From IMG/VR virus record IMGVR_UViG_3300022562_000629, positions 1 to 20,351 of that record: 20,351 bases of DNA, one strand, 5' to 3'. The position numbers and the translations under genes were made by a program. Below are positions 4,683 through 15,318 of the stretch, one piece after another. The DNA is from a virus. Below the pieces are notes generated by a model. That model did no database searches and had not been told where the DNA came from. It saw nothing but the letters and a program-made list of their open reading frames with translations. Position 1 is the stretch's first letter, and every line of letters starts with the position of its first letter.

Positions 4683-5167
4683 TGGCAATAACAGACTATT
4701 ATGGACTGTGTGAAGATGGTTTGGTTACTGTCTTGCAAACTCTGACAGATTTCTTTCCTGACCCCGCTCAAGTTGCAAGTGCCGAGGATAGCGAGATGAC
4801 CAAGGGCGTTCAATACTATGCAAGAGTTCACCCCGGCGCCTTTCCTGATACTGAGAACATATCCCAAGAAGCTTTCGTTACTTGGGAAATTGTCTTGGAT
4901 GTATTTGTAAAGATCGTGGAGTTGAAAGATATGTGGTCGGACTTCAAAGCTTTGAGAGCTGCAATCTTTTGGACACTCTTACAATATCCCACTCTTGGAG
5001 GCGTTGCAGGTATTGACAATATAACGCTATCTGCAAGAGAAAAGCCAAAAGGTATATATGAGGAATATGATGACGGCTCAACAGCTAAAGAGCCTTTTAT
5101 GATTACTCAAGAGCTTTCCATAAACGTCTTGCAGAGGATAGCAATAACAGGAGGCGAGTATGCCTAA
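4682..5167 (+). CDS. tail terminator-like protein
   Basis: The product is 161 residues. It begins with a helix (YYGLCEDGLVTVLQTLTDFF) and continues with mixed alpha/beta, including FVTWEIVLDVFVKI, a long helix at MWSDFKALRAAIFWTLLQYP and a last strand FMITQELSINVLQRIAI. This alternating layout and the size fit tail terminators (lambda gpU-like), which cap the tail tube and join it to the head. The place after the gp10-like gene and before the tube gene agrees. It overlaps the neighbours by 1 base (4682) and 8 bases (5160-5167). No diagnostic residues exist, so this rests on order and fold pattern. Confidence 0.5.
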   Translation: MAITDYYGLCEDGLVTVLQTLTDFFPDPAQVASAEDSEMTKGVQYYARVHPGAFPDTENISQEAFVTWEIVLDVFVKIVELKDMWSDFKALRAAIFWTLLQYPTLGGVAGIDNITLSAREKPKGIYEEYDDGSTAKEPFMITQELSINVLQRIAITGGEYA

Positions 5168-5375
5168 GAGATCAAGCAGTAGGGCAAGCACAGGCGCAGG
5201 ATTGAGATATACTGGCAAGGGCTTTGTAAATAATGTCCCTGCCCGCGATCTTTCAGAGGATGAAGTATTGCAGCATGGCGGTTATGATCTTCTCATTAAG
5301 TCAGGCTGCTATGAAGATATAAAACAAGATGAGGCGGTAACTGATATGCCCGCCGAGGAGATGTCTAATGGCTAG
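5160..5375 (+). CDS. small basic-headed linker protein
   Basis: The product is 71 residues. A basic head (MPKRSSSRASTGAG) is followed by KGFVNNVPARDLSEDEVLQ and LLIKSGCYE, then an acidic tail. The middle is like short phage proteins with a 'VPARDL-helix-LIxSGxY' unit found between neck and tube genes. GGAGG lies 6 bases upstream of the ATG. It overlaps both neighbours by 8 bases, so it is translated as part of the same chain of coupled genes. Function is unknown; being next to the tube suggests a structural or assembly role. Confidence 0.65.
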   Translation: MPKRSSSRASTGAGLRYTGKGFVNNVPARDLSEDEVLQHGGYDLLIKSGCYEDIKQDEAVTDMPAEEMSNG

Positions 5376-6773: not shown

Positions 6774-6991
6774 TAGAGTCCACAAACATGATGGCGGCAA
6801 CAGGAACGCCCACAAGTGAATACCATTATGCCGTAACAAAAGCAAGGATGATCTACTTATACACAGGGAGAGCAATAGACCCTTGGGATGTTGAAGATTA
6901 TCCTTATGACTGGTGGGACGCTATCCGCTCTTTGTGTGTTGACTTGCCCAATGCTGTCAAAGAGTTGAGTGGCCGTCCCTCATTTGAATAA
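6426..6991 (+). CDS. tail assembly chaperone, frameshifted long form (gpGT-like)
   Basis: A -1 slip on the A AAA AAA heptamer at 6761-6767 would join the short chaperone to a second frame ending at 6991, giving about 188 residues. The downstream part reads KLVESTNMMAATG and continues with MIYLYTGRAIDPWDVEDYPY, aromatic and acidic like lambda T domains. The only ATG of that frame inside the overlap (6710) has no ribosome binding site, which argues against a separate gene. The join would be 6426-6767 plus 6767-6991. The G/GT pair is a conserved strategy of siphophages and some other long-tailed phages. Efficiency cannot be read from the sequence. Confidence 0.75.
6761..6769 (+). promoter_or_regulatory. 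-1 ribosomal frameshift slippery site
   Basis: A run of nine A follows GTT. In the zero frame the codons are TTA AAA AAA AAT TAG, giving the A AAA AAA heptamer, one of the most slippery -1 sites known in bacteria. The zero-frame stop follows at once. I see no strong stem-loop just downstream and no clear internal Shine-Dalgarno stimulator. The A-run could also cause polymerase slippage. Confidence 0.75.
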
Positions 6992-7002: not shown

Positions 7003-9038
<2,036 letters not shown>

Positions 9039-9042
<4 letters not shown>

Positions 9043-10583
9043 CATGGTTAGACAACAGATTTGGTAAATTCAAGTTTGGCACTTCCAACAAGTTTGGCCC
9101 CAGCGGCACAAGGAAATCACTTGGCTGGGATATTTCCGTTGATTGGGATGAGGATGGAATCTATGAGGTTAACGAAGCATCCCATCTGATAGGTATCTTT
9201 GTCAAAAGAGGCCGAACACGTATGCTGAAACCGAAAGGCGAAGGTATTCAGGAAGTAACCAACGGGACTGCTACCATCGTGTTGAGCAATCATGATGGAA
9301 GATATAATGGTTGGAACAGCTCAAGCCCTCTATATCCCAATGTCGTTGAAGACAAATATATTCGCGTTCGTGTAAGAGACTTCAACAGCGGGATAATATA
9401 CCCCGTCATCGTTGGGAAAGTTAATAACATTGTCCCATCCGACTACGGGAGCAAGGCTAAAGTAACTTTATATGTAAACGACGGTCTTTTGTATCTCCGC
9501 AACACTCCGGCCAATGTCGCTATTCAGGCAGACATATCCCCGTCAGATGCAATTGATCTTATGCTTTCATCTGCCAAGTGGCCTGCAATATGGGGCAGAG
9601 ACTTGGAAGTATCGGCAGACAATATTCCCTATTTCTGGACTCGTGGCAAAAATGCCATGAGTGAAATTGTGGATGTTTCCAATTCATTCTTTGGCTATTT
9701 TTATGTTGATGCAAATGGACAGGCACGTTATTTGAACAGGTCAAACGTCTCAGACCTTGTAGCCGAGTATCCACAGGAATATCTGTTAAAGGATATTGAA
9801 AATCCACAGCCTCACGATATAAGGCGGAATGTAATCCGTTTAATAGTGCATCCACGAACAGCAGCAACGCTTGGTACAATATTTCAGATGGTGGGTTCTG
9901 CTCCCTATGTTGACCCCGGTGCAGCAAATGCCTTTATCATGTTCCCACAATACATGTATAACAATCAAAGCGTACCTGCAAATAATGTAGCTATTGAAAC
10001 ATTCTCGGCCAACTCTCAAAGCGATTTCGGCGGGACAGATAAAACATCAAGCTGCACAATCTCATTAACTGACTTTGGAGACAAGGCAAAGGTCACGGTT
10101 ACGAATAATGACGCATCAAGAGTCTACATCAATTACGATATAGAAGGGGAGGCGATATGGGAGCCTAATGCAGCGGATGTTACTTATCCTAAAGACCCGT
10201 CAACAGTGGACAAGCCTAGAGAGTTGGTGATGGATTTGCCCTGGCAGCAAAATCCTAATGTTGCACAGGATATAGCCAATGTGATTGGGCCCTTCTTTGA
10301 AGGCCTGCATCCGCTCCCCACGATCAAGATTGAGAATCGTCCCGATATTCAATTTGCCCCCGACTTGTTTTCGATTGTATCCGCTGATATCCCAAAGATT
10401 GGCGTATCGGGTGTTTCTTTTCGCGTGGGCGGGATTGAGCATCAAAGTATATCAACGGGCATAGGAGATAACTGTCAAAAGATCGTTACGACATTACACC
10501 TTGAGCCTTACATTGCAGCAGGCGAATTTATGATTTGGGATACTGCCTCAACCTGGGACACTGAGACAGTATTTGGATGGTGA
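9039..10583 (+). CDS. baseplate hub / tail-tip protein
   Basis: The product is 514 residues. After a Phe/Lys/Gly-rich start it has the pattern ISVDWDEDGIYEVNE, then IGIFVKRGRTRMLKP, then TATIVLSNHDGRYN, SPLYPNVVEDKYIRVRVRD and YPVIVGKVNNI. This order (a DWDxDG calcium-type loop, the RGR strand, the L-N/S-N-x-D-G-R-Y strand, the PLYPN strand) is known from tail hub proteins of many siphophages, which close the tube and hold the fibres. The middle and C-terminal parts (LVADLPWQ-type strand at ELVMDLPWQQ; SIVSADIPKIGVSGVSFRVG) fit the rest of the hub fold. It is translationally coupled to the tape measure gene by ATGA. No peptidoglycan-cleaving domain is visible. Confidence 0.7.
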
Positions 10584-10586
10584 CAA

Positions 10587-11195
10587 ATGACAACAGATAG
10601 AATTATTACGGCTAAAGACTACGGCGGAAGTGCAAGGGAATATATCAAGAAACAACAGCGAACGCTCTTATTAAGAAAGGGCGTATCTGTGACGATCAAG
10701 GACATGGATAAGCAACCAGTGGGCAAGCCTGTTTACGCCCGCATCTGGAAGAGCCAATGGATTGCTGACTGTGAATGTAAAGGCGCTTCTTTCGTTGACC
10801 CTGATGAGCCTGTATTCTTTTGCTTTTCGTGCGGAAACTTCGCGCACGGCAGTAAACTTCGCCCTGTTGTATTTCCTCCTGAAGCAGAGCGCAAAGAGAT
10901 TGAGCGCCTTTTGTTGGAGCGCCCACAGGAAATAAGAGCAGGCTTGACCGATCTTGAACGTGTTGCAATGGCAGTACCTTTGCTATATGTTGAGACCGAG
11001 GAATATATTCTTGAAACAGCAAGCATGGATAAAGTAATAAGTGCTATGCAAAAAGGAGAGCTACCACCGCCAGGAAAGATGGTTAAAAGAAAGCCTCTTA
11101 CAAGATCATGGCGGCCCGGCGAGTCTGTTAACGACCTCATCCAACAACAAGACAAGGCTATCAAGGAATACAAGGCGAAGAAAGGTAGAACATAA
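10587..11195 (+). CDS. zinc-ribbon protein in the tail module
   Basis: The product is 202 residues. It has a four-Cys zinc site at residues 62-82, C-x-C-x14-C-x2-C (DCECKGAS, then FFCFSCGN). The N-terminus is basic (KKQQRTLLLRKG). The C-terminal half is helical with DLERVAMAVPLLYVETEEYI and ends in a Lys-rich helix. It starts 3 bases after the hub gene stop and overlaps the next gene by one base (TAATG), so it belongs to the tail transcript. The ribosome binding site is weak, which suggests coupling. It is not a recognised family. It may be an assembly helper or minor virion part; a regulatory role is less likely here but not excluded. Confidence 0.75.
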   Translation: MTTDRIITAKDYGGSAREYIKKQQRTLLLRKGVSVTIKDMDKQPVGKPVYARIWKSQWIADCECKGASFVDPDEPVFFCFSCGNFAHGSKLRPVVFPPEAERKEIERLLLERPQEIRAGLTDLERVAMAVPLLYVETEEYILETASMDKVISAMQKGELPPPGKMVKRKPLTRSWRPGESVNDLIQQQDKAIKEYKAKKGRT

Positions 11196-11806
11196 TGGCC
11201 TTTGACAATAATTTTACGGCGGTTACTGGGCAAACTTATACGGCCAGCCAATACAACACTCATACAAGAGACAACTTTGATGCCCTATGGGTTTATACAA
11301 CGGCGGGCGATCTTGTTTATGCCACAAGCGCCACGACCCTTACGCGGCTTGCGCTTGGAAGTGCTGGACAATCCCTGATAGTTAACGCTGGTGGGACTGC
11401 CCCAACATGGGACAAACCCGCAGGTGCTATTGATGATATTAGCTATGCAGAGAGAGCAACAGCAGGAACGCTAACAAATACATCATATGCGAACTTAACA
11501 AGCCTCTCCATTACCTTGACCTTGACAAAGACATGTACAATCTTTGCCATGTTCTCAGGAAAGTTTTATGCCAGTGGAGCAGGGAGCTACAACAGCGGAT
11601 TTAGGTTTGTAATTGATGGAAATAATCAGACAAGCGGAACAGAGACAACGTGTAATGTCGGGGATTTAACTTTGCCCGTTGCTGTTGCGTGGGCTTATCC
11701 CAGCGTTGCATCTGGCAGTAGGACAATCACAATGCAAAATAGAGTCATTGTCGGGGATACTATGGGGGTATCTGGCACAATGACAGCATGGGCGGTGGTG
11801 GAATGA
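11195..11806 (+). CDS. tail fibre / receptor-binding type protein
   Basis: The product is 203 residues. The segment at 38-72, AGDLVYATSATTLTRLALGS followed by AGQSLIVN and GGTAPTW, is a common linker unit of phage tail fibres and host-specificity proteins. Residues 85-203 form a beta-sandwich-like domain rich in Thr, Ser and Gly (LTNTSYANLTSLSITLTLTK, then FRFVIDGNNQ), suiting a C-terminal receptor-binding head. AAAGG lies eight bases before the ATG. The stop overlaps the start of a 34-residue gene by ATGA. Receptor binding is inferred from the linker and the place. Confidence 0.65.
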   Translation: MAFDNNFTAVTGQTYTASQYNTHTRDNFDALWVYTTAGDLVYATSATTLTRLALGSAGQSLIVNAGGTAPTWDKPAGAIDDISYAERATAGTLTNTSYANLTSLSITLTLTKTCTIFAMFSGKFYASGAGSYNSGFRFVIDGNNQTSGTETTCNVGDLTLPVAVAWAYPSVASGSRTITMQNRVIVGDTMGVSGTMTAWAVVE

Positions 11807-11907
11807 GTAAGTTATTATCAACTCTTTTTGCCATATTTGCCTGCTCGATCATATCAGCAGTTACTTTATTTTTACTGCTTGAACCATTTGGAGTATTTCT
11901 AAGATGA
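11803..11907 (+). CDS. 34-residue membrane microprotein between two fibre genes
   Basis: ATG at 11803 opens a 35-codon frame ending at TGA 11905-11907. It overlaps the previous stop by ATGA (11803-11806) and the next start by ATGA (11904-11907). The product is MSKLLSTLFA followed by one hydrophobic span of about 22 residues, then a Leu-rich end LEPFGVFLR. A single Cys at position 14 follows IFA, which is not a good lipobox because Phe is at -2. The double overlap strongly argues that it is translated. It could be a minor lysis or exclusion factor, or simply a coupling gene; the family is not recognised. Confidence 0.6.
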   Translation: MSKLLSTLFAIFACSIISAVTLFLLLEPFGVFLR

Positions 11908-12962
11908 CAACACTCAATAGTTTTTTTCCCACCGATGGCGTTGATGATGTTCTTGACGATTGGATTCAAGACCTGCTCGGTGCCGTCATACGTGCCGAGT
12001 ATGTAAACACAGAGACGATAACAGCCACAAAAGAACTTGCCGATTCTGATTGTCAAATGCAAGTCATTACTCCAAGCGGCGCAAATCAAACCGTGGAGCT
12101 GGCTCCAGAAGCTACAACCAACCATGTGTTTTTTATCAAGAACCCATCAGGCGCAACGTATGACATACCGATAAAAGACGACAGCGGAGTTACTACTTAT
12201 TGCACATTAGACGCCGATCAATGGGCGCTCTGCATCCCCGCTGGTTCTGCATGGCATGTAATCTGGTCTGGAGATTTGGGCGCATCCCCTGATACCACTG
12301 TGCAACTCTCCTCCAATTCTCCAAGGGTTTATACGTCTGGTGACACATGGACAAAACCCGCAGGACTTGTTTATGTCATTGTTGAAGTTGTGGGGAGTGG
12401 TGGCGGTGGGGGAGGGGCTGCGTCTGCTACTTCTCAATCTGCTCTTGGCGGTTCCGGTGGTGGTGGCGAATATGCAAAAGGAAAGATTGTTGCCGCTTCA
12501 CTTGGGGCAACTGAAACCGTTACAGTAGGTGCAGGAGGTGCAGCAGGAACGGCAGGAGCAAACAACGGAAGCGCAGGTAATACTTCGTCATTTGGGGCAC
12601 ATGTTACAGCCGCTGGCGGCGGCGGCGGTTCTGGTCAAACAGCGAGTGCAACCGTACCTCGTAGCGGCGCTATAAGCGGCGCAGGCGGAACAGGCGGCAG
12701 CGGTGGAAGTATAAGAATTGATGGAGAAAATGGTTTTGATGGTTCTGTATTCTCAATTGCAGGCGTTGGTGTCCCGACACAAGGCGGCGGGAATCAGTTA
12801 TCATCGCACGCATACACAAACGCGTTAAATGTTGATGGCAGCGCTGGAAAGAACTATGGCGGGGGTGGTTCTGGCGGCAGAACATCCAACAGCACAACAG
12901 ATCGAGCAGGCGGCGCGGGTGCCGCTGGTGTTGTTATTGTTTGGGAATATGTTCAAGCATAA
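11904..12962 (+). CDS. glycine-rich tail fibre / host adhesion protein
   Basis: The product is 352 residues. The first 145 residues are beta-rich (CQMQVITPSGANQTVELAPE) and contain the AWHVIWSGDL element common in fibre proteins. From residue 148, TWTKPAGLVYVIVEVVGSGG opens a glycine-rich domain with many Gly runs (GGGGGGAAS, GGSGGGGEYAKG, AAGGGGGSG, GGGGSGGRTS), ending GAAGVVIVWEY. This start and end are diagnostic of glycine-rich adhesin domains at phage fibre tips, where variable loops between polyglycine sheets contact the receptor. It is the last tail gene before the lysis genes. Exact host contact is inference. Confidence 0.75.
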   Translation: MTTLNSFFPTDGVDDVLDDWIQDLLGAVIRAEYVNTETITATKELADSDCQMQVITPSGANQTVELAPEATTNHVFFIKNPSGATYDIPIKDDSGVTTYCTLDADQWALCIPAGSAWHVIWSGDLGASPDTTVQLSSNSPRVYTSGDTWTKPAGLVYVIVEVVGSGGGGGGAASATSQSALGGSGGGGEYAKGKIVAASLGATETVTVGAGGAAGTAGANNGSAGNTSSFGAHVTAAGGGGGSGQTASATVPRSGAISGAGGTGGSGGSIRIDGENGFDGSVFSIAGVGVPTQGGGNQLSSHAYTNALNVDGSAGKNYGGGGSGGRTSNSTTDRAGGAGAAGVVIVWEYVQA

Positions 12963-12983
12963 AAATGAGGTATAAATAAGATC

Positions 12984-14114
12984 ATGATCAACCTAATTCC
13001 AAAATCAATTTCTATTGAACTTTTGCGGCATACTTATCGGCGGGCATATTCAACGTTTAAACAAAAGCCGGGCACTTCCTACGCTCTACCTTTGCACTTT
13101 GCGCAAGGAATGGATGGCGCTCGTTATCAAGTTAATTTTGACCCGTCAATTGCAACCCTTCCAATGTCTTTTGCCTTTCAGAAATTGACAGAGGGCACAA
13201 GCTACCGAGACACATCCATTGACGCTCTTTGGGAGGGTGTCAAGCAGTTACAGGTGCGCGGCGGGTATCACTATCAGAGGAGCGGCATGAGTTGGACCGC
13301 GCAGGCAAATAACTATCTCGGAGCTGTCGCCTTGCATGATTACAACATCCACGCAATTGACCTTGAGGGTTATGGTAATACCTACTCGGACACGATGTTT
13401 GCCGACACAATGCGGATAATGGATACCGTTGAAAGAGAGACAAAACAGAGGACGGTACTATACACCAATATTTCAACTTATACTCTTTTTGCGGCAGCCA
13501 TCAAAAGGCAATTCCCAACAGACTATCAAGACCGATTAAATAACCTTTTGCTTTGGATTGCGTATCCATCCACAACGTTATCCGCTCCCCCACTTCCTAC
13601 GGGCAGATCAACCGCCTTATACCCCTGGTCATTCTGGCAGGATAATTGGAACTGCACCGGATGTGGTTGTCAGGTTGCGAGTGACCATAATTTTTTCAAT
13701 GGCTCTATTGATGAGCTTTATAAATTTGTTGGAGCGTCAACAACTCCACCCCCCACAGGAGATCCCATGTTATTTGAAGCAACACTAAAAGATGGTCAAG
13801 CATTGAACGTAAGAAACGGAGTAGGGCAAACAGGGACACAAGTAATTTACACGCTCAATGGCGGAGATAAAGTTATTGGCGCAAGAGTGACGGAACATAC
13901 TTGGTTTGTGATTGACCATCTCATAATTGATGGAAACAAAGTTGTTCCTGAGATGCAAACTTATTGCAGCTCTTACAGTGAATATTATTCCGAGATCAAA
14001 CAATATATTCCTCCCGCTCCTGCTCATACTGTCACGCTTGATAACATGAGCTTTACTATTGATGATGAAATATACGAGATCAAAAACGTAACAGCGACAA
14101 AGAGAACACAATGA
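12984..14114 (+). CDS. GH25 lysozyme endolysin with SH3-type binding domain
   Basis: The product is 376 residues. Residues 35-250 follow the GH25 muramidase fold: FAFQKLTEGTSYRD at about 63-76, GGYHYQRSG at 93-101, the catalytic AIDLEGYG (Asp126, Glu128), RTVLYTNISTY, LLLWIAYPS, PWSFWQDNW, and DHNFFNGSIDELYKF at the end. The usual Asp of the first strand is not obvious. After a Pro/Thr linker (TTPPPTGD) residues 262-325 look like an SH3 cell-wall binding domain (LNVRNG). It cleaves the peptidoglycan beta-1,4 link at lysis, after holin action. No signal peptide is seen. The ribosome binding site (GAGG, about 13 bases ahead) is poor. The stop overlaps the next start by ATGA. Confidence 0.85.
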   Translation: MINLIPKSISIELLRHTYRRAYSTFKQKPGTSYALPLHFAQGMDGARYQVNFDPSIATLPMSFAFQKLTEGTSYRDTSIDALWEGVKQLQVRGGYHYQRSGMSWTAQANNYLGAVALHDYNIHAIDLEGYGNTYSDTMFADTMRIMDTVERETKQRTVLYTNISTYTLFAAAIKRQFPTDYQDRLNNLLLWIAYPSTTLSAPPLPTGRSTALYPWSFWQDNWNCTGCGCQVASDHNFFNGSIDELYKFVGASTTPPPTGDPMLFEATLKDGQALNVRNGVGQTGTQVIYTLNGGDKVIGARVTEHTWFVIDHLIIDGNKVVPEMQTYCSSYSEYYSEIKQYIPPAPAHTVTLDNMSFTIDDEIYEIKNVTATKRTQ

Positions 14115-14911: not shown

Positions 14912-14925
14912 GTACAATGTTTTCA

Positions 14926-14944
14926 GACAGTCGCGGAGACTGTC
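14926..14944 (+). other. perfect hairpin ahead of the first holin-type gene
   Basis: GACAGTC (14926-14932) and GACTGTC (14938-14944) are exact reverse complements around a GCGGA loop. No T-run follows; instead CACAACAAAAAGGAG leads to the ribosome binding site of the gene at 14968. It is an mRNA hairpin in the 56-base gap before the first holin-type gene, and may affect mRNA stability or translation. Confidence 0.5.
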
Positions 14945-14967
14945 ACAACAAAAAGGAGAATAAAGTA

Positions 14968-15318
14968 ATGAATGAATCACAGATCATACTATTAGGCTTG
15001 CTTGCCTCAGCTCTGACTTGGCTTTTCAAGTTGCTGGCTGCTTATGCAAAAGTCAAGCCGTCCCGGCTCGTTGTAAATGTTGTGCTATATGCTATTGCTA
15101 TTGCTTTTGCAGTTGCGTGGTCGGGAGCTGTTTTGCCTTCATTCCCAACCTTCGGAGGAGACGTTGCTTTATTTGCTCAAGCACTCTGGCAATACATAAA
15201 TGACTGGGTGGCACTCGGAGCGCCTATTCTCGGCTCTGCCACGTTGATCTATAACTTGCTTTATGAACGTGTTGCCCTGCCTGCTTTCAATCGAGCTAAG
15301 AAGCTCTTGGGTAACTGA
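14968..15318 (+). CDS. holin-type membrane protein
   Basis: ATG 14968, with AAAAGGAG ten bases ahead, is preferred over an upstream ATG at 14917 that lacks a ribosome binding site. The 116-residue product has three hydrophobic spans: ILLGLLASALTWLFKLLAAY near the start, VVLYAIAIAFAVAWSGAVL in the middle, and a third (GAPILGSATLIYNLL) near the end. It ends in a basic tail (PAFNRAKKLLGN). Size, spans and basic C-terminus fit a phage holin, which opens the membrane at a set time so the endolysin can reach the wall. It lies shortly after the endolysin gene. The holin role is inferred. Confidence 0.6.
   Translation: MNESQIILLGLLASALTWLFKLLAAYAKVKPSRLVVNVVLYAIAIAFAVAWSGAVLPSFPTFGGDVALFAQALWQYINDWVALGAPILGSATLIYNLLYERVALPAFNRAKKLLGN

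What the first reader, a model, noticed from the sequence alone, without database searches (positions are those of the whole stretch)
11803..11907. 34-residue membrane microprotein locked between two fibre genes by ATGA on both ends
A 35-codon frame with a single clear membrane span overlaps its upstream neighbour's stop and its downstream neighbour's start, each by exactly ATGA. Chance overlap at both ends is unlikely. Membrane proteins are unusual in the middle of a fibre module. It may be a superinfection exclusion, lysis-timing or phage exit factor, or may only carry ribosomes into the adhesin gene.
Basis: partly seen in the sequence, partly recalled or inferred. Interest (0 to 1): 0.55.

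Follow-up and report, generated by a model that had tools for sequence, protein, structure and literature searches.

The report
Membrane microprotein in swappable phage slot
A phage carries a 34-residue single-helix membrane protein squeezed between two tail-fibre-type genes; related phages carry different small membrane proteins or another gene in the same place, so it looks like a real but fast-changing accessory gene whose job, perhaps lysis control or blocking rivals, is still untested.

Summary
The ORF is exactly as described: 11803-11907 (+), 34 aa, ATGA overlap at both ends, one hydrophobic helix. ATGA joints are this phage's house style, so they support a gene but are not special. Hydrophobicity is beyond chance (P 0.0003 with locus composition, 0.011 with the ORF's own T-rich composition). 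The ORF's own codon use is not gene-like. No relative was found in Pfam, PHROGs, NCBIfam, 50,697 phage records or 18 related records.

Synteny decides. In 15 related viruses with the whole slot in view, 5 (window included) have a 96-129-nt gap here. In each, the only ORF of 25 aa or more is a 31-43-aa protein with one hydrophobic stretch, of mutually unrecognisable sequence. Four carry a ~185-aa soluble gene, one a 224-aa gene plus a 63-aa signal-anchor protein, three nothing, two other genes. The state flips between sister viruses and tracks the upstream protein's C-terminal domain. It is probably a genuine accessory membrane gene in an exchangeable cassette. I favour a lysis accessory (0.35) over superinfection exclusion (0.25), coupling or young ORF (0.2), fibre assembly (0.1).

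The parts
11803..11907 (+). 34-aa single-helix membrane microprotein ORF (the finding)
   Evidence: frame and overlaps; hydropathy against chance; one helix, pLDDT 91.6; slot survey; against: codon use
11195..11806 (+). Upstream fibre-type gene: conserved N-terminal ~72 residues, exchangeable C-terminal domain (type alpha here)
   Evidence: fibre nature inferred from position and modular build; only a weak PHROG hit of unknown function
11904..12962 (+). Downstream glycine-rich fibre-type gene with conserved N-terminus
   Evidence: PF21722 59.3 bits; PHROG 863 tail fibre assembly E 2e-45; N-terminus conserved in relatives
12984..14114 (+). GH25 endolysin gene, two genes downstream of the microprotein
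   Evidence: PF01183 50.7 bits; PHROG 291 endolysin
14917..15318 (+). Multi-helix membrane protein, holin candidate by position only
   Evidence: Hydrophobic stretches in the translation; no family hit above cut-off
10587..11195 (+). Conserved tail-module gene used to reach relatives
9039..10583 (+). Conserved tail-module gene used to reach relatives and for the tree

Best explanation
The ORF is probably a genuine late gene for a single-helix protein of the host cytoplasmic membrane. It occupies an exchangeable accessory slot between the variable C-terminal domain of one fibre-type gene and the conserved start of the next. It would be made from the tail/lysis message by re-initiation at ATGA, insert without a cleaved signal (probably N-in), and accumulate late in infection. 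Its most likely action is as a small lysis accessory that oligomerises in the membrane and sets or assists the moment at which the GH25 endolysin, two genes downstream, gets out. Shown: ORF, overlaps, helix prediction, recurrence of membrane ORFs in this slot, slot exchange. Inferred: translation, membrane insertion, topology. Guess: lysis role (about 0.35). Probability that it is a real translated gene in such a slot: about 0.75. The confidence given is for the full statement, lysis role included.
For: Slot survey: in 5 of 15 viruses the 96-129-nt gap holds exactly one ORF of 25 aa or more, and it is hydrophobic. Filled gaps elsewhere in the same genomes are not hydrophobic: 4 of 4 beside the fibre gene have KD 2.18 or more, 9 of 9 others 1.11 or less. 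Chance of the window's hydropathy 0.0003 to 0.011. Codon use is gene-like in the L009, L012 and L007 slot ORFs. Homologous post-fibre microproteins in L004 and L009 under constraint (dN 0.445, dS 2.13). The slot state flips between sisters. For lysis: GH25 gene after the fibre gene in window, L012 and L017; single-helix lysis proteins with ATGA overlap known in mycobacteriophages (PMC13056207, abstract and passages).
Against: The window ORF's own codon use is not gene-like (z -0.58 against random synonyms, -2.82 against the phage's genes), and neither is L048's. The slot microproteins show no demonstrable homology to each other. No family match. Another holin candidate exists at 14917. The link of slot content to the upstream C-terminal domain is not predicted by a lysis role. 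No expression data.
Confidence: 0.35

Rival explanations
1. Superinfection exclusion: the microprotein travels with the upstream adhesin-like domain because it protects the infected cell, or progeny meeting debris, from phages with that same adhesin, by occupying a membrane partner needed for adsorption or DNA entry.
For: Slot content tracks the upstream C-terminal type: beta 3 of 3 with a microprotein, gamma 4 of 4 with the 185-aa gene, alpha 2 of 3 with a microprotein. Exclusion proteins often sit beside receptor-binding genes (PMC9586334, passages). Fast sequence turnover with kept membrane character.
Against: L043 has type alpha and no microprotein in the slot. Known Cor and Llp are lipoproteins; this has no lipobox by eye. 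Linkage may be mere hitch-hiking of adjacent DNA. It lies in a late tail operon, while exclusion proteins are said to be expressed early (PMC9586334, passages).
Confidence: 0.25
2. Coupling ORF or young gene: module exchange leaves a short stretch between two genes, and an open frame in it is kept because it carries ribosomes to the next start, or by chance; the peptide has no function and T-rich DNA makes it hydrophobic.
For: Window ORF is 42% T and its codon use is like random synonyms. No homology among slot microproteins. ATGA coupling is general in these genomes.
Against: Hydropathy is high even for the ORF's own composition (P 0.011) and recurs in 5 of 5 such gaps; other gap ORFs are not hydrophobic; codon use in L009, L012 and L007 is gene-like; L043, L030 and L046 manage without an occupant.
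Confidence: 0.2
3. Fibre assembly or anchoring: the helix is a partner of the upstream fibre-type protein, needed for its folding or placement, and is exchanged with its C-terminal domain.
For: Tracks the upstream C-terminal domain type.
Against: L043 has a type-alpha domain with an empty slot (its microprotein lies after the fibre gene). Phage tails normally mature in the cytoplasm (general knowledge); 34 residues leave little room for a binding domain.
Confidence: 0.1

Closest known systems
Single-helix holin-like lysis proteins (LysF1b of F1 mycobacteriophages; one-TM proteins of Gordonia phage lysis cassettes)
   Same: Small phage protein with one membrane helix near an endolysin gene, little sequence identity between groups, ATGA overlap with the upstream gene for LysF1b (PMC13056207, abstract and passages; PMC9671378, section 16 and passages)
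   Different: Those are 79-145 aa with a large charged cytoplasmic C-terminal domain and N-out-C-in topology; this is 34 aa with almost nothing outside the helix, lies upstream of the fibre gene, and has no shown lysis role
Superinfection exclusion lipoproteins Llp (T5) and Cor (T1, phi80, N15)
   Same: Small membrane-associated protein encoded beside a receptor-binding gene (PMC9586334, passages; PMC13164509, passages; PMC11436027, passages)
   Different: Outer-membrane lipoproteins with a folded domain that binds the receptor FhuA; this is a bare helix with no lipobox by eye
T7 gene 17.5 holin and T4 t holin beside tail-fibre genes
   Same: Small membrane lysis gene adjoining fibre genes (the neighbourhood is recalled, not read; PMC8365609, start of abstract in the listing, says only that T7 17.5 codes for a holin)
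   Different: They follow the fibre genes; T4 T is 218 aa; no sequence relation was tested

Membership tests
Phage holin (any class) | Membership of a described holin family | tested here: not met
   No hit in Pfam, PHROGs or NCBIfam at the limits used
Phage holin (any class) | At least one membrane helix | tested here: met
   Hydropathy 2.67 over residues 8-26; one helix predicted; prediction only
Phage holin (any class) | Forms holes or depolarises the membrane and sets lysis timing | not testable with these tools
   Needs expression in cells
Single-helix LysF1b-like lysis proteins | Charged cytoplasmic C-terminal domain of 52 aa or more after the helix | tested here: not met
   Eight residues after the hydrophobic core; range for the known ones from PMC9671378 section 16
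Cor/Llp superinfection exclusion lipoproteins | Lipoprotein signal with lipobox and a folded domain after it | tested here: not met
   By eye on the translation; one helix only; no signal-peptide program was run
Cor/Llp superinfection exclusion lipoproteins | Encoded beside the receptor-binding gene | tested here: inconclusive
   It lies between two fibre-type genes; which protein binds the receptor is unknown

The most novel reading that the evidence does not exclude
These phages carry adhesin-linked membrane microproteins: a 31-43-residue helix exchanged together with the variable C-terminal domain of the upstream adhesin, conserved in place and in membrane character but not in sequence, acting as the cognate exclusion or exit factor for that adhesin.
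Probability: 0.15. Interest if true: 0.65.

Novelty: new variant of a known kind. Interest (0 to 1): 0.4.

Why it matters
If true, position and membrane character are kept while sequence turns over completely, so homology searches miss a class of phage membrane microproteins; reading a slot across relatives is a way to find them. The link to the upstream adhesin-like domain gives a direct test of whether exclusion or exit factors are matched to receptor choice. If it is only a coupling ORF, it is a clean example of how module exchange seeds short hydrophobic frames.

Tried and rejected
A1 found none in genome contigs, A6 one. No isolated phage matched genes 10587, 9039 or 11195 or three microproteins. 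No close relative was found, so no dN/dS could be made for the window ORF itself.

Homology among slot microproteins: whole-sequence shuffles gave a few low counts (L012/L048 26 of 2000, window/L012 75 of 2000, L017/L004 post-fibre 7 of 2000), but a block shuffle that keeps the hydrophobic profile gave 70, 176 and 263 of 2000, and 159 and 187 for the other two pairs tested; not claimed. A regulatory element instead of a gene: 1 promoter-like and 3 terminator-like sites in 11100-13100, within the range of the shuffles and none inside the ORF. Lipoprotein reading: rejected by eye. The host-genome prophage regions (19 fetched, 15 read) were too distant to inform the slot. Left out of the slot count of 15: L005, L032, L035, L047 (cut off inside or just after the slot), L044 and L045 (other arrangement), L001 and L002 (other genes around the match).

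Full report
Observation. The ORF is at 11803-11907 on the + strand, 34 aa, with ATGA overlaps on both sides. The window is one 20,351-base virus record. It has Mu-like head genes (PF10123, PF10124), a tape-measure-type protein (7003-9042, PHROG 1538), conserved tail genes at 9039 and 10587, a short fibre-type protein at 11195, the microprotein, a glycine-rich fibre-type protein at 11904, a GH25 endolysin at 12984 and a multi-helix protein at 14917. ATGA is the house style: 5 of 21 junctions in my hand list of + strand genes, and 29 of 201 junctions in 16 related loci. The overlaps therefore support a gene in the operon but are not in themselves odd.

Is it more than chance? The best 19-residue stretch has mean hydropathy 2.67. 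Random open frames reach that with P 0.0003 at the locus composition and 0.011 at the ORF's own composition, which is 42% T. AlphaFold2 on the single sequence gives one helix, residues 2-33, mean pLDDT 91.6; this says nothing about function. Against: its synonymous codon choice is no better than random (z -0.58) and is unlike the phage's genes (z -2.82), with 33 codons scored.

Relatives. Related viruses were reached through the flanking tail genes. All but one are uncultivated viral contigs; one is a prophage-like region in an Anaerolinea MAG (L030, 33% identity). In the class of that MAG 23 of 396 genomes had a match at E <= 0.001 to the 9039-type protein, all but L030 weak and over part of the protein. 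A Chloroflexota host is thus a lead only; no control class was searched. No isolated phage matched.

The slot. I defined it as the stretch between the stop of the 11195-type gene (the last copy where it is duplicated) and the start of the 11904-type gene. Fifteen viruses show it whole. Five, the window included, have a gap of 96-129 nt, and in each the only ORF of 25 aa or more is a small protein with one hydrophobic stretch that fills the gap: window 34 aa (KD 2.67), L009 9204-9335 43 aa (2.92), L012 7296-7415 39 aa (2.87), L017 7562-7657 31 aa (2.59), L048 5665-5787 40 aa (1.80, the weakest; chance P 0.02 to 0.07). L009 and L017 also start at ATGA; L012 overlaps the fibre start by one base. 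Four viruses (L004, L006, L008, L013) have a ~185-aa protein of unknown function there, which also starts at ATGA. L007 has a 224-aa gene and then a 63-aa signal-anchor-like protein (KD 1.37). L043, L030 and L046 have only 3, 12 and 47 nt. L018 and L019 have other genes. In L043 a 33-aa hydrophobic ORF (6836-6937) instead follows the fibre gene, at ATGA. L004 (11017-11136) and L009 (10791-10919) have homologous 39- and 42-aa membrane microproteins after the fibre gene, in L009 one gene further on, under constraint (dN 0.445, dS 2.13, saturated).

Controls. A simple gene caller run on 16 loci found 24 gaps of 55-260 nt, 13 of them filled by an ORF; the four beside the fibre gene (window, L009, L012, L043) have KD 2.18-2.92, the other nine at most 1.11. 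This caller missed L017 and L048, I think because it chose another fibre start in one and the contig ends inside the fibre gene in the other. Codon choice was gene-like in the L009, L012 and L007 slot ORFs and in both post-fibre ORFs of L004 and L009 (z 2.5 to 4.5 above random synonyms), intermediate in L017 (1.52) and L043 (2.19, but -2.21 against genes), and not gene-like in the window and L048.

Exchange. On a tree of the 9039-type protein (13 viruses; L006 and L046 not included) the label 'membrane ORF in slot' (L007 counted in) needs 6 changes, at least 3 forced by well-supported branches; L004 (185-aa gene) and L009 (microprotein) are sisters with 100/99 support. Two rows, L048 and L030, are long branches of unsure place. 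The C-terminal part of the upstream protein falls into types that go with the slot content: alpha (window, L009, L043, and the cut-off L032), beta (L012, L017, L048; all with a microprotein), gamma (L004, L006, L008, L013; all with the 185-aa gene), and L007 alone (identities 24-38% within alpha and beta for the six pairs aligned). The microproteins themselves do not align above a profile-preserving shuffle. The unit of exchange therefore seems to be the upstream C-terminal domain plus the slot gene, between two conserved N-termini. Simple hitch-hiking of neighbouring DNA would give the same pattern.

Mechanism. Position and membrane character persist while sequence turns over, which fits an accessory protein acting on the membrane rather than a structural part. 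A lysis accessory is my first choice: late operon, a GH25 endolysin two genes on, membrane microproteins on either side of the fibre gene in this group, and known single-helix lysis proteins (PMC13056207, abstract and passages; PMC9671378, section 16 and passages). Superinfection exclusion is close behind because of the link to the upstream domain and the known placing of exclusion proteins beside receptor-binding genes (PMC9586334, passages; PMC13164509, passages; PMC11436027, passages). A pure coupling ORF explains the overlaps but not the repeated hydrophobicity. PMC11323111 (passages) reviews phage small proteins; the passages shown held nothing of this kind. The paper searches listed no paper that by its title or the start of its abstract describes such a slot; that is a limited search.

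Verdict. Real gene more likely than not (about 0.75), ordinary in its overlaps, interesting in its slot behaviour, function open.

Noticed in passing
window 11803-11907; L012:7296-7415, L017:7562-7657, L048:5665-5787, L004:11017-11136, L009:10791-10919: Six of eight microproteins examined have a cysteine in the hydrophobic core (5 of 7 if the homologous post-fibre pair counts once); chance 0.002 to 0.14 depending on the assumed cysteine rate, and noticed after the fact.
   Followed up: partly
L004:11017-11136, L009:10791-10919: Homologous 39- and 42-aa membrane microproteins after the fibre gene(s), apparently under purifying selection; a better target for a bench test than the window ORF.
   Followed up: partly
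window 11195-11806 and relatives: The 11195-type protein has a conserved ~72-residue N-terminus and at least four unrelated C-terminal types, like a swappable adhesin.
   Followed up: partly
window 5160-5375; L021:4419-4565, L022:4265-4507, L023:3064-3285: Small soluble ORFs fill a gap before the 5368-type gene; those of the relatives share a GVPGLPH motif, so this may be a conserved unannotated small gene.
   Followed up: no
L018:5947-6435, L019:8856-9338: A second, partial relative of the 10587-type gene (about 50% identity over 83 residues) lies further downstream in both records.
   Followed up: no
L012:8666-10537: Endolysin-position protein that joins a GH25 domain to a phosphodiester glycosidase (NAGPA, PF09992) domain.
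   Followed up: no
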